NCBI RefSeq assembly: GCF_006716315.1
Contig: NZ_VFOV01000001.1
Span: forward strand, 3,488,501-3,552,500
Direction of reading: 5' to 3'
DNA from: Nocardioides albertanoniae
GTDB taxonomy: Bacteria > Actinomycetota > Actinomycetes > Propionibacteriales > Nocardioidaceae
DNA: 64,000 bases
Part shown: positions 8,952 to 59,676 of the stretch, one piece after another
How the letters are laid out: each line of letters begins with the position of its first letter
Position numbering within the stretch: the first letter of the stretch is position 1
Made by a program: the position numbers and the translations under genes
The notes under the pieces: model-generated
The model's database searches: none
What the model saw: the letters and a program-made list of their open reading frames with translations, nothing else
What the model was told of the DNA's origin: nothing

Positions 8952-9908
8952 ATGAGCACTCCTCCTCTGCCCGGGCCCGTCGCCGTCATCGCCGGCGGGC
9001 TGAGCCACGAGCGCGACGTGTCGCTGGCCTCCGGCCGCAACCTCGTGCGCGAGCTTTCGGCGCTGGGTGTGGAGGTGGCTGCCTATGACTTCGATCGGGC
9101 CCTGCTGCACAACCTCGAACGCGACAAGGCCGTCGTGGCGCTGCCCGCGCTGCACGGCCAGTTCGGTGAGGACGGCGAGATCCAGACGCTCCTCGAGCTG
9201 ATCGGTGTCCCCTACGTCGGCACCGACTCCGCCTCCTGCCGGGTCGCCTTCGACAAGGCCGCCGCGCGCGAGATCCTGCGCCGCGGCGGCATCCCGGTGC
9301 CCGACTCGGTCTCGCTCTCGGCCACGACCTTCCGCGACGTCGGCGCACCCGTGCTGATGGAGCACGTCATCTCCCGCATGGGCGAGCGCGTCGTCGTCAA
9401 GCCGTCGCGAGGTGGCTCGGCGCTCGGCATCACCGGTGTCGACGGCCTCTCGGCCCTCCCGGCCGCCCTGGTCAAGACCTACGCCTACTGCGACGAAGCG
9501 CTCATCGAGCGCTTCCACTCCGGCATCGACGTCTCCGTGGTGGTGCACGAGACCGAGTCCGGCGCCAAGCCCCTGACGCCGATCGCCATCGACTTCAGCA
9601 AGGGCCACGAGTTCGACTTCGCCGCCCGCTACACCGCCGAGTTCGTCGGCTTCGGTCGCCCCGACCTCCCCGACTCGCTGCTCGCCAAGCTCGGCGAGAC
9701 CGCCGTACGCGCCCACGAACTGCTCGGCATGCGCGACATCTCCCGCACCGACTTCATGGTCACCCCCGAGGGCAGCTTCGTCGTGCTCGAGGTCGCCATC
9801 ACCCCCGGCGCCACCGAGACCAGCGTCTTCCCCTTCGCCGCCAAGCACGACGGCACCTCGATGGGCGAGGTCACCCTCGCCCTCCTCCAGCGCGCCCTCG
9901 ACCGCTGA
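8952..9908 (+). CDS. D-Ala-D-Ala ligase-like ATP-grasp enzyme (altered metal site)
   Basis: The 318-aa protein follows the Ddl fold: GGLSHERDVSL at 15-25, HGQFGEDGEIQ at 68-78, the phosphate loop GGSALG at 154-159 and R265/D267 (RTDF). The C-terminal metal motif reads E280-V-A282-I-T-P-G, whereas characterised Ddl enzymes have E-x-N. The Asn that binds the second Mg2+ is therefore Ala. The Tyr-Ala-Lys-Tyr loop of canonical Ddl is also not obvious. It should ligate an amino acid or similar substrate with ATP, but D-Ala-D-Ala synthesis is doubtful. It lies in tandem with the RAM-domain gene and converges on the inverted-repeat unit at 9917-11217. Confidence 0.8.
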   Translation: MSTPPLPGPVAVIAGGLSHERDVSLASGRNLVRELSALGVEVAAYDFDRALLHNLERDKAVVALPALHGQFGEDGEIQTLLELIGVPYVGTDSASCRVAFDKAAAREILRRGGIPVPDSVSLSATTFRDVGAPVLMEHVISRMGERVVVKPSRGGSALGITGVDGLSALPAALVKTYAYCDEALIERFHSGIDVSVVVHETESGAKPLTPIAIDFSKGHEFDFAARYTAEFVGFGRPDLPDSLLAKLGETAVRAHELLGMRDISRTDFMVTPEGSFVVLEVAITPGATETSVFPFAAKHDGTSMGEVTLALLQRALDR

Positions 9909-9916
9909 CGCGGGTC

Positions 9917-10002
9917 GGCTGGGATACCCGGTCGACCGGGTATCCCTGGACATGATGGGCGCTGAAACACCCACCAGGTCCATGAAGTGCCCGTCAAGCA
10001 GC
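9917..10002 (+). repeat. Left 86-bp inverted repeat with a 26-bp perfect palindrome
   Basis: This arm is the reverse complement of 11132-11217 without gaps, at 74 of 86 positions by hand alignment. It contains a perfect 26-bp palindrome at 9921-9946 (arms starting GGGATACCCGG, centre TCGA). The 12 differences all lie in the inner part of the arm (9952-10000). Confidence 0.9.
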
Positions 10003-10039
10003 ACTGTTCATCTCGCCATTCGGTGGTCGACCGTTTACT

Positions 10040-11005
10040 TCAGGCTGCTGACCGCGCGAAAGCGGCGCGAATCTTGGCGGCGACCCGCTCGGGGTGGGCG
10101 AGGTCAGCCCAGGACAGCCGGATGCATCGCCAGCCCGTGAGGTCCTCGATCATCTCCTGCCGACGCTTCTCCCGAAGCACCGCATCGGTGGCTGACTCGC
10201 CCTCGCGTCGCAGCTCCTCATATTTGATGCGCCCGTCAAACTCGACCCACACGCCGTACTCCGGCCACGCGAAGTCAAGTCGCGCGACTACGCGTCCCGA
10301 TTCGTCACGAACCTCGTACTGCAGGCAAGGCATCGGAAGCGCTTGAGCGAAGCAGAGATGCAACACCCTCCCTTCGCCAACGGACTCGATGCGTCCGTCA
10401 GCGAGCCGGAGGACCAGGTCGGTGGTCAGGGTCTGCGGCCAATGATCCATCGTGCCGGCATACCGCTGGACCACTTGCTCCATCGTCACGAGCTTGCGAT
10501 GGAGCAAACAGCTCGCCAGGACGAGGCCGACCTCAACCGTTGCCAACGTAGTGACCTCGAGTAGTGCCCGCACCGGCGATGTGACGTCGACATCGCCCAG
10601 ACGGATGACGTCGCCATCGATCAGGCGTCCGCGATGTTGTTGGATGCCGGCTTCCTTCCGCCCGCTTCTTCCGTCTCTCCGCGTCAGATGCACGTTGCGC
10701 AGATCCAGACCCCACGTCGGGATCGGGTCGGGAAATAAGGCGATAGCGGAGGTATGGGAGACCACCACGTCCGTCTTCGCTTGCCTGGCCGCAGCTCTAG
10801 CTCGCACCGCATGCCTCGAGCGATCGTCGAGCGCCGCGAACGGCGCCGCATTCACGTACGCACCGCGGCGAGCTCGTACCCACTCTCCCGACCGGACAGC
10901 ACGCAGGATCGCGGCATCGTCGTAGCCTGAGGCGAGCAACTCCCGTCGCAACTGGATGGGCATGAGACGCACGTCGTCTGGTTCGAGATTCATGCCGCTC
11001 AGCAT
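10040..11005 (-). CDS. AbiEi-like HTH plus DUF559/Vsr-type nuclease domain protein
   Basis: The 321-aa protein has an N-terminal winged-helix segment (residues about 15-52, ending RRGAYV) of the type found in AbiEi antitoxins. A middle domain follows, then a C-terminal DUF559 domain of the Vsr/PD-(D/E)xK class, with LDFAWPEYG at 243-251 and the catalytic-type E-x-D-G-x-x-K-Y (VEFDGRIKY) at 254-262. The start is uncertain: the ATG at 11005 (AGG 8 nt upstream) or the ATG at 10993. No AbiEii toxin partner is adjacent. The gene is alone between two inverted repeats, and it may nick or process DNA; this is an inference. Confidence 0.75.
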   Translation of the reverse strand: MLSGMNLEPDDVRLMPIQLRRELLASGYDDAAILRAVRSGEWVRARRGAYVNAAPFAALDDRSRHAVRARAAARQAKTDVVVSHTSAIALFPDPIPTWGLDLRNVHLTRRDGRSGRKEAGIQQHRGRLIDGDVIRLGDVDVTSPVRALLEVTTLATVEVGLVLASCLLHRKLVTMEQVVQRYAGTMDHWPQTLTTDLVLRLADGRIESVGEGRVLHLCFAQALPMPCLQYEVRDESGRVVARLDFAWPEYGVWVEFDGRIKYEELRREGESATDAVLREKRRQEMIEDLTGWRCIRLSWADLAHPERVAAKIRAAFARSAA

Positions 11006-11131
11006 GACGAAGACCTGCGACAATCTCGGGCCTGCCAGAGCGGGCTGTGGATAACTCGATCCCCAAGTGACGCTGTGGACACTCACCGGCCCGCGATAAT
11101 CCGAGCATGGCCATACTCCGAGACGCTCGGG

Positions 11132-11217
11132 GCGGCTTGACGGGCACTTCGTGGACTTGAGGGCCGTTACTTTGCCCGTCATGTCCAGGGATACCCGGTC
11201 GACCGGGTATCCCAGCC
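11132..11217 (-). repeat. Right 86-bp inverted repeat with a 26-bp perfect palindrome
   Basis: Partner of the arm at 9917-10002. The identical 26-bp palindrome lies at 11188-11213. Read on the minus strand, it is followed by the nuclease gene, with about 126 bp between the arm and the gene start. Confidence 0.9.
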
Positions 11218-11237: not shown

Positions 11238-12353
11238 TCAGCTCAGGCCGGTGAGCTTGCCGGCGATGCCGCCGGCGGCCTTGAGGGCGACGCCTTCCTC
11301 GAAGTTGCGGGTCACCTGGGGCACGTGCTTCTCGGCCTCCTCGATCGCGCTGGTGAGCACGTCGGAGGCCGGGGTGTCGGGCCACAGGTAGAGGGAGAGG
11401 GCGCCGGGGATCGAGTTGACCTCGTTGATGTAGACCTCGCCCTTGCCGTCGGAGAGGAAGTCGATGCGGAGGATGCCGGTCAGGCCGGTGAGCTCCACGA
11501 CGCGTGCGGCAAGGTCCTTGATCTGCTTGGTGACCGACTCCTCGACCTGCGCGGGAAACTCGCGCGGGGAGGAGGAGAGACCGTCGGTGTGGACGTACTT
11601 GGCGGAGTAGTCGTACATCTTCGCCTCGTCGGAGCGCAGCGGGCGCTCGACGTCGCTGACCGCGACCTCGGGCGCGGTGCGCACCGAGGCGTTGAGGTCG
11701 AAGAGGTCGGGGCGGTACGGCTCGACGACCGCGCCGGCACGCAGGTGCGGCGAGGTGTTGAGGAGCGCGAGACCGGTCTCGTAGTCGTCGACGACCTCGA
11801 TGCCGATCGAGGAGCCACCGAAGCGCGGCTTGACGATGTAGGGGCCGGTGAAGGAAGGCTCCGCGAACCGGGAGAGCAGCTCACGCTGCAGCGACGGGAG
11901 GCCGGCGTTGAGCATGACCGCGCCGAAGGCGAGCTTGTCCATGCCGAGCGCGGCCGAAGCCGGGGTGGCGCCGGTGGCCCGAAGGCCCGCGAGCTCGAAG
12001 AGCCACTGGATGCCGCCGGCCTCGCCCGCGCCGCCGTGGAAGGCGGAGAGGATCGGGCCGGTCTCGAGGCGCTTGCCGCCGCCGAAGCCACCGGTCGTGT
12101 AGAAGCCGTCGCCCTTCTCGGCGCCGAGGCGGAACTCGACCGGCTTGGAGCCCTTCGGCTCGCCGCCGAGGAAGTCGCGCGCCTCCTGCTTGGCGGGCAC
12201 CAGGAACCACTTGTCGGAACGCGCCCAGTAGAGGCACGTCACCTCCACACCGGCACCAGAGAGGACCCGCTCGGCCTGCAGGCCGGTGAGGATGCTGATG
12301 TCGTGCTCGGCGCTGGGGCCGCCGAAGACGATCGTCGCCTTGGTTACGCTCAT
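11238..12353 (-). CDS. D-Ala-D-Ala ligase-family ATP-grasp protein, divergent
   Basis: The 371-aa protein has FGGPSAEHDIS at 10-20, GGSSIG at 179-184, YSAKY at 249-253, RIDF at 296-299 and NEVNSIPG at 310-317 with both metal ligands (E311, N313). The usual HGxxGEDG loop reads HGGAGEAGG (106-114), and the end of the active site reads PGALSLYLW instead of PGxTxxSxxP. Canonical Ddl makes D-Ala-D-Ala for peptidoglycan; the altered loops suggest a different acceptor. It is the third gene of the hydrolase-Mur ligase-Ddl operon, 18 nt after the Mur ligase. By position it matches ddlA of mycobacteria, so a true Ddl role is not excluded. Confidence 0.82.
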   Translation of the reverse strand: MSVTKATIVFGGPSAEHDISILTGLQAERVLSGAGVEVTCLYWARSDKWFLVPAKQEARDFLGGEPKGSKPVEFRLGAEKGDGFYTTGGFGGGKRLETGPILSAFHGGAGEAGGIQWLFELAGLRATGATPASAALGMDKLAFGAVMLNAGLPSLQRELLSRFAEPSFTGPYIVKPRFGGSSIGIEVVDDYETGLALLNTSPHLRAGAVVEPYRPDLFDLNASVRTAPEVAVSDVERPLRSDEAKMYDYSAKYVHTDGLSSSPREFPAQVEESVTKQIKDLAARVVELTGLTGILRIDFLSDGKGEVYINEVNSIPGALSLYLWPDTPASDVLTSAIEEAEKHVPQVTRNFEEGVALKAAGGIAGKLTGLS

Positions 12354-27112: not shown

Positions 27113-27146
27113 GAGATGTTCACCGAGGTATCTCGGTGAACATCTC
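27113..27146. repeat. Palindrome of the TTCACCGAG family, probable two-way terminator
   Basis: 15-bp arms (27113-27127 and 27132-27146) surround GTAT between convergent genes. A related copy with the reverse-complement loop (ATAC) lies at 52815-52838, also between convergent genes. Confidence 0.75.
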
Positions 27147-59532: not shown

Positions 59533-59627
59533 GCCGAGTCGGCGCGTTCTCACCAGAAATCCCGTCGAGTCGGCGCGTTAGAACGCGCCGACTCGACGGG
59601 ATTCTTCGTCAGGACGCGCCGACTCGG
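59533..59627. repeat. Nested palindrome, two-way terminator between the permease gene and ilvC
   Basis: Perfect 22-bp arms at 59558-59579 and 59582-59603 surround AG. A second pair of arms with GCCGAGTCGGCGCGT lies outside (59533-59550 and 59611-59627). The unit GTCGGCGCG occurs four times. Confidence 0.88.
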
Positions 59628-59676
59628 CACATCCCCAGGGTCAGCGAGCAGATGCTCGCTGGCGCTCGCGAGCTCG

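What the first reader, a model, noticed from the sequence alone, without database searches (positions are those of the whole stretch)
9917..11217. Nuclease-type gene framed by 86-bp inverted repeats with perfect 26-bp palindromes
Seen directly: two gap-free inverted arms of 86 bp (about 86 percent identical) bracket a single AbiEi/DUF559 gene, and each arm holds the same 26-bp perfect palindrome. No transposase is present. The layout matches the logic of RAYT-REP units, but the protein is a Vsr/PD-(D/E)xK-like nuclease with a winged helix. A mobile or domesticated palindrome-spreading system is possible and, to my knowledge, not described.
Basis: partly seen in the sequence, partly recalled or inferred. 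Interest (0 to 1): 0.8.

Follow-up and report, generated by a model that had tools for sequence, protein, structure and literature searches.

The report
Nuclease gene with cognate dispersed hairpins
A small nuclease gene in a Nocardioides bacterium sits between two inverted, hairpin-forming DNA arms whose copies are also scattered through the same genome, and most of its relatives examined in other Actinomycetes have matching arms of their own, which points to an undescribed kind of palindrome-spreading genetic element.

Summary
In detail: arms 9917-10015 and 11119-11217 (99 nt, 83%) bracket one intact gene, each with the same perfect 26-bp palindrome. The protein is an AbiEi-like part joined to a Vsr/I-Bth0305I-like nuclease fold. 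Three findings lift it above a curiosity. (1) Relatives are mostly bracketed by inverted arms: score >=30 in 77 of 79 named loci and 36 of 40 loci from other genera (five shared), against 1 of 83 ordinary genes and 0 of 121 neighbours, both from the genus. Arm sequence differs between lineages but agrees within a locus; the unpaired central tetranucleotide matches in 56 of 70 loci (4.5 expected). (2) Arms of the matching type are dispersed in the same genome (17 palindrome places here), mostly behind stop codons (44 of 53). (3) Of eight close species three have gene plus arms and five do not; at other sites one hairpin family stands in for another. No RAYT gene in the genome, no target duplication, no adjacent AbiEii gene. 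Best reading: a REPtron-like system run by a Vsr-like nuclease, probably acting on hairpins at gene ends. Mobility and enzymology are inferred, not shown. Eight searches of an open-access library found no description.

The parts
9917..10015 (+). left inverted arm (palindrome P, hairpin H, segment D)
   Evidence: I1, 99 nt, 83%; its first 90 nt fold with z -4.3 as ssDNA
9921..9946 (.). 26-bp perfect palindrome P, left copy (as a hairpin: stem 11, TCGA centre)
9947..9982 (+). hairpin H of the left arm
   Evidence: helix supported by covariation in relatives
9985..9998 (+). segment D, complementary to the 5' side of H (alternative pairing)
   Evidence: read; the right arm folds this way
10040..11005 (-). 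AbiEi-like / Vsr-like nuclease gene, 321 aa from Met60 (or 317 aa from Met64, end 10993); third-position GC 0.74 against 0.94-0.95 in the two neighbours
11119..11217 (-). right inverted arm
   Evidence: I1
11188..11213 (.). 26-bp perfect palindrome P, right copy
11152..11187 (-). hairpin H of the right arm (less perfect than in relatives)
11136..11149 (-). segment D of the right arm
8952..9908 (+). D-Ala-D-Ala ligase family gene (left neighbour; its stop faces the left arm)
11238..12353 (-). D-Ala-D-Ala ligase family gene (right neighbour; its stop faces the right arm)

Best explanation
This is a single-gene, REPtron-like selfish or domesticated element. The AbiEi-like N-terminal part recognises the element's own hairpin arms, and the Vsr/I-Bth0305I-like domain nicks or cuts DNA there or at hairpins of like kind in gene 3' ends. 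The break is filled with a copy of an arm or, rarely, of the whole arm-gene-arm unit, replacing the hairpin that stood there. The arm-gene-arm unit is the autonomous form; solo arms (P-H-D) and double units (P-H-P) are the dispersed non-autonomous forms. Shown by sequence: architecture, pairing of arm type with gene, conserved fold of the arms, dispersal, presence/absence, different hairpins at the same gene ends, no detectable target duplication. Inferred: binding, cutting, copying, and that the encoded protein is what moves the arms.
Against: No movement was observed. Whole units rarely change place: of the 60 most similar rows shown (of 189; rows repeat genes) 53 share both flanks, so the gene is mostly inherited in place. 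By the strict palindrome test 24 of 72 and 26 of 80 loci show no pair at all. Scores below 30 in two of 71, two of 79 and four of 40 loci; below 25 in five of 35. No ordinary-gene control was run outside the genus. Several genomes carry copies of a palindrome type that the fetched gene loci lack (7 for one type, 4 for the other); the test is not corrected for kinship and not every gene copy was fetched. The protein is nearly absent from plasmids (2 weak matches in 72,556 records) and phages (none in 50,697). The hairpins are also plausible terminators and could be kept for that reason. Foldseek alone gives Vsr and I-Bth0305I E 0.12 and 0.39.
Confidence: 0.62

Rival explanations
1. The arms are transcription terminators or insulators. 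Each gene end has its own, and the nuclease gene merely lies between two of them; similarity comes from selection and recombination.
For: 44 of 53 palindromes have a stop codon facing them within 150 bp and 1 of 53 lies between divergent genes (heuristic ORFs; 7 of 53 fall inside a called ORF). In the window each arm follows the stop of a ligase gene.
Against: Neighbour and ordinary genes lack matching inverted ends. The central unpaired 4 nt match within loci. The arms hold a covarying second hairpin, more than a terminator needs. Inner, not outer, flanks match.
Confidence: 0.13
2. The palindromes are operators: the AbiEi domain binds them to repress its own gene and a set of other genes.
For: AbiEi represses its operon by binding inverted repeats (PMC3985639 passages). 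One arm lies upstream of the gene.
Against: The other arm is downstream of the gene, and dispersed copies lie behind genes rather than at divergent promoters (1 of 53). A repressor does not need a conserved nuclease domain.
Confidence: 0.1
3. Another, unlinked enzyme moves the hairpins; the nuclease gene is a passenger caught between two of them.
For: Solo arms outnumber genes and occur in genomes whose fetched genes have other arm types. Other hairpin families share the same sites and no gene for them is known.
Against: A passenger would not be bracketed in nearly all relatives examined, with lineage-specific arms. No Y1 (RAYT) transposase in this genome; other transposase kinds were not searched.
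Confidence: 0.1
4. A defence or repair nuclease: the protein cuts hairpin or mismatched DNA of invaders or repairs cruciforms, and the arms are its regulatory sites.
For: Vsr-like fold; AbiEi and ZorE models match in the defence library (best E 2e-8).
Against: Both direct neighbours are ligase genes (genes further out were not scanned); dispersed cognate arms are not explained.
Confidence: 0.05

Closest known systems
REPtrons: RAYT/TnpA-REP transposase with REP palindromes (PMC8266576 abstract and outline; PMC3733652 passages)
   Same: chromosomal gene bracketed by cognate palindromes, non-autonomous copies dispersed between genes, palindrome and protein varying together
   Different: enzyme is an AbiEi plus Vsr-like nuclease, not a Y1/HUH transposase; arms carry P, a second hairpin and a third segment; solo units sit mostly behind stop codons
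IS1272 inverted-repeat-replacing transposition (PMC5678879, abstract and outline)
   Same: inverted repeats as targets, replaced by the element's own repeats, no target duplication
   Different: IS1272 is an insertion sequence with its own transposase gene; here a Vsr-like nuclease, and mostly single arms spread; replacement here is inferred from different hairpins at one gene end
EDxHD homing endonuclease I-Bth0305I and Vsr (structures 3r3p, 1cw0; the name EDxHD is recalled)
   Same: catalytic domain fold
   Different: not shown to lie in an intron or intein; joined to an AbiEi-like part; bracketed by hairpin arms
AbiEi antitoxin of type IV toxin-antitoxin systems (6y8q; PMC3985639 passages)
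   Same: fold of the N-terminal two thirds; binding to inverted repeats is known there
   Different: extra nuclease domain, no adjacent AbiEii partner, arms on both sides

Membership tests
RAYT-REP (REPtron) | Y1/HUH tyrosine transposase | tested here: not met
   PF01797 absent from the whole genome, control rings in 5 of 14; the protein itself shows AbiEi_4 and a Vsr-like fold
RAYT-REP (REPtron) | gene bracketed by cognate palindromes | tested here: met
RAYT-REP (REPtron) | same palindromes dispersed between genes of the same genome | tested here: met
RAYT-REP (REPtron) | GTAG tag at the palindrome foot | not tested
   no systematic count made
RAYT-REP (REPtron) | enzyme cuts its cognate single-stranded palindrome | not testable with these tools
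   needs biochemistry
classical insertion sequence | target site duplication | tested here: not met
   shared direct words >=6 nt in the outer flanks in 9 of 44 loci, 17% in mismatched loci; very short duplications could escape
classical insertion sequence | terminal inverted repeats | tested here: met
homing endonuclease (I-Bth0305I type) | Vsr-like catalytic fold | tested here: met
homing endonuclease (I-Bth0305I type) | cuts an allele that lacks the element | not testable with these tools
   empty alleles exist but cutting needs an assay
AbiE type IV toxin-antitoxin | AbiEi-type antitoxin domain | tested here: met
AbiE type IV toxin-antitoxin | adjacent AbiEii toxin gene | tested here: not met
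   one gene between the arms in the window; both neighbours are D-Ala-D-Ala ligases
Pfam DUF559 | profile match | tested here: inconclusive
   not among matches at E <=1 (window protein) or E <=0.1 (31 relatives); I did not check that the model is in this copy

The most novel reading that the evidence does not exclude
A class-wide family of hairpin-armed elements in Actinomycetes, each with a Vsr/homing-type nuclease guided by an AbiEi-like DNA reader, spreads by replacing the 3'-end hairpins (terminators) of host genes with copies of its own arms, so that gene ends across these genomes are a battleground between rival hairpin families, each with its own enzyme.
Probability: 0.45. Interest if true: 0.93.

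Novelty: categorically new. Interest (0 to 1): 0.87.

Why it matters
PMC3733652 (passages) reports palindromic repeats (CGTC type) that lack a dedicated transposase and leaves open what moves such repeats. The present palindromes are other repeats in another bacterial class, but they offer a concrete, testable case: a second, unrelated enzyme family with its own cognate palindromes. If the protein acts on hairpins at gene ends, it would explain why close species carry different hairpins behind the same gene, and it would supply many natural enzyme-hairpin pairs of differing specificity. Several relatives are now named 'AbiEi family antitoxin' in public records and would need another name.

Tried and rejected

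Rows dropped or selected: L080 and L196 (short flanks); L430; one of the class-wide loci (L406) is from the same family and two (L414, L415) from one genome of the same order. Four of 44 arms (L081, L082, L135, L140) were left out of the covariation set A2 after I had seen, three of them with weak inner similarity, so that set is selected. Loci for one search were those with palindrome score >=7, made non-redundant at 99% identity. L063 and the window were left out. rests on the 59 genomes whose gene loci I had, of 215. Sites A and D are defined by the left flank only or nearly so; their right flanks are not conserved.

Literature: eight searches in an open-access library found no paper on this gene family with palindromes; subscription papers and preprints are largely missing. 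The names EDxHD, REPIN, MITE and the GTAG tag rule are partly recalled.

Full report
What is there. The window lies at 3488501-3552500 of a single 4.97-Mb contig. Between two convergent D-Ala-D-Ala ligase genes lies one minus-strand gene, bracketed by inverted arms of 99 nt (83%). Each arm starts, from the outside, with the 26-bp palindrome P, then a second hairpin H, then a segment D that can pair with the 5' side of H in its stead. As single strands, 90 nt of either arm fold better than all 200 shuffles (z -4.3). The gene's third-position GC is 0.74 against 0.94-0.95 in the ligase genes.

Relatives carry arms too. In the genus 178 of 215 genomes have a relative at E <=1e-30; in a sample of the family, 174 of 198 genomes and 24 of 26 genera at 1e-20; in a sample of the class, 166 of 246 genomes and 81 of 103 genera at 1e-10. 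Aligning the upstream flank to the reverse complement of the downstream flank gives a score >=30 in 69 of 71 genus loci, 77 of 79 named loci (partly the same genes) and 36 of 40 loci from other genera of the family (five of them also in the named set), against 1 of 83 ordinary ORFs of the genus. With one pipeline for both, 56 of 70 nuclease ORFs and 0 of 121 neighbours reach 30. In the class-wide sample 30 of 35 scored loci reach 25 and 27 reach 32, without an ordinary-gene control there. The two distant paralogues of this genome (L105, L106) have their own, different arms; L105 shows them only with wider flanks and counts as a miss.

Arms match within a locus, not across. Matching palindromes flank 47 of 80 named loci and 0 of 309 displaced windows; 26 of the 80 show none by that strict test. 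For 44 loci the similarity lies inside the palindromes (mean score 28.8) and not outside (11.8) or in direct orientation (10.3, 9.7). In 70 non-redundant loci the central four nucleotides, which do not pair, are the same in both arms in 56, against 4.5 expected from other loci. Stem sequence follows protein distance (Mantel r 0.275, 0 of 2000 permutations). The H hairpin, not used for choosing loci at first, shows double changes in all 12 pairs (78.5% of cells paired); with P, 86% of cells pair against 31-46% in slid controls (40 of 44 arms, see Tried and rejected).

Arms are dispersed. This genome has 17 palindrome places with <=3 mismatches to the core; of the seven with one mismatch six differ in the unpaired centre. 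Forms seen are P-H-D, P-H-P (palindromes 62 bp apart, start to start) and P alone. Ten solo copies read in two other species have H-like sequence beside P. GATACCCGG-N4-CCGGGTATC occurs in 25 of 215 genomes and GAATCSCCGGTCGACCGGSGATTC in 16 of 215, the reversed control being zero in the genomes listed. Among the 59 genomes whose gene loci I had, two or more further copies occur in 6 of 7 with that arm type against 6 of 52 without, and in 5 of 6 against 3 of 53 (Fisher p 1.3e-4 and 6e-5, not corrected for kinship). Of 53 palindromes in fetched loci 25 lie between convergent genes, 26 between genes in line, 1 between divergent genes and 1 at a contig end; 44 have a stop codon facing them within 150 bp and 7 fall inside a called ORF (heuristic ORFs).

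Presence and absence. Five close species (ligase 93-95% identical) have 138-285 nt between the two ligase genes, filled with other hairpins; three (G000, G010, G209) have 1330-1336 nt with gene and arms. A second Nocardioides luteus record (L190) also has the unit at this place. At further sites of this genome seven relatives were compared. Behind one gene (site A, left flank only) two relatives have a TTAA-centred arm, four a GCCGAGTCGGC hairpin and one a plain hairpin. At site B none of seven has the P-H-P unit; all have other hairpins. At site C G209 has a like P-H-P unit, G010 and G014 a TTAA-centred one, G133 and G111 another family, G210 and G042 a plain hairpin. At site D none has a palindrome, but the right flank differs. 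In G209 two systems coexist: gene L077 with its arms, and gene L109 with TTAA-centred arms like the solo arm at site A. No target duplication is seen. Whole units seldom move: 53 of the 60 most similar rows shown share both flanks; one genome (G200) has two copies 81% alike at unrelated places.

How it most likely works. By analogy with RAYT-REP (PMC8266576 abstract; PMC3733652 passages) and with IS1272, which replaces inverted repeats and leaves no duplication (PMC5678879 abstract), I infer that the AbiEi part reads the arms, since AbiEi binds inverted repeats (PMC3985639 passages), and that the nuclease breaks DNA at hairpins, after which an arm is copied in. The agreement of both centres in a locus suggests that arms are renewed from one another. 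Membership: it is not a REPtron (no Y1 enzyme), not a classical IS (no duplication seen) and not an AbiE system (no adjacent partner), although it works like the first.

Standing. The association of gene, arms and dispersed copies is firm in the genus and well supported beyond it. That the protein moves the arms is likely; the cutting step and hairpin replacement are hypotheses.

Noticed in passing
window 27113-27146: A 15-bp-stem palindrome, 7 nt behind the stop of an IclR-family gene, resembles the arm palindrome of the distant paralogue L105 (the alignment score is not above the best of 300 random segments). Possibly a solo copy of a second system.
   Followed up: partly
window 59533-59640: A 22-bp-stem hairpin flanked by GCCGAGTCGGC motifs (family Y), a type that in close relatives stands at the same gene ends as the P-H elements. 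Its source is unknown.
   Followed up: partly
L160, L161, L164, L166 (between the ligase genes) and L287, L290, L291: Another hairpin family (GTCGAG...GTGTCGAGACCAACAC) occupies the sites in relatives; found in 0 of 238 nuclease gene loci scanned.
   Followed up: partly
L075/L077/L189 and other orthologous loci: The nuclease looks less conserved than the DNA around it (for example 87% protein identity against about 90-93% nucleotide identity of flanks); no rate test was made.
   Followed up: no
G000:C1:452057 (L105) and 4733105 (L106): Two further members of the family in the same genome with quite different arms.
   Followed up: partly
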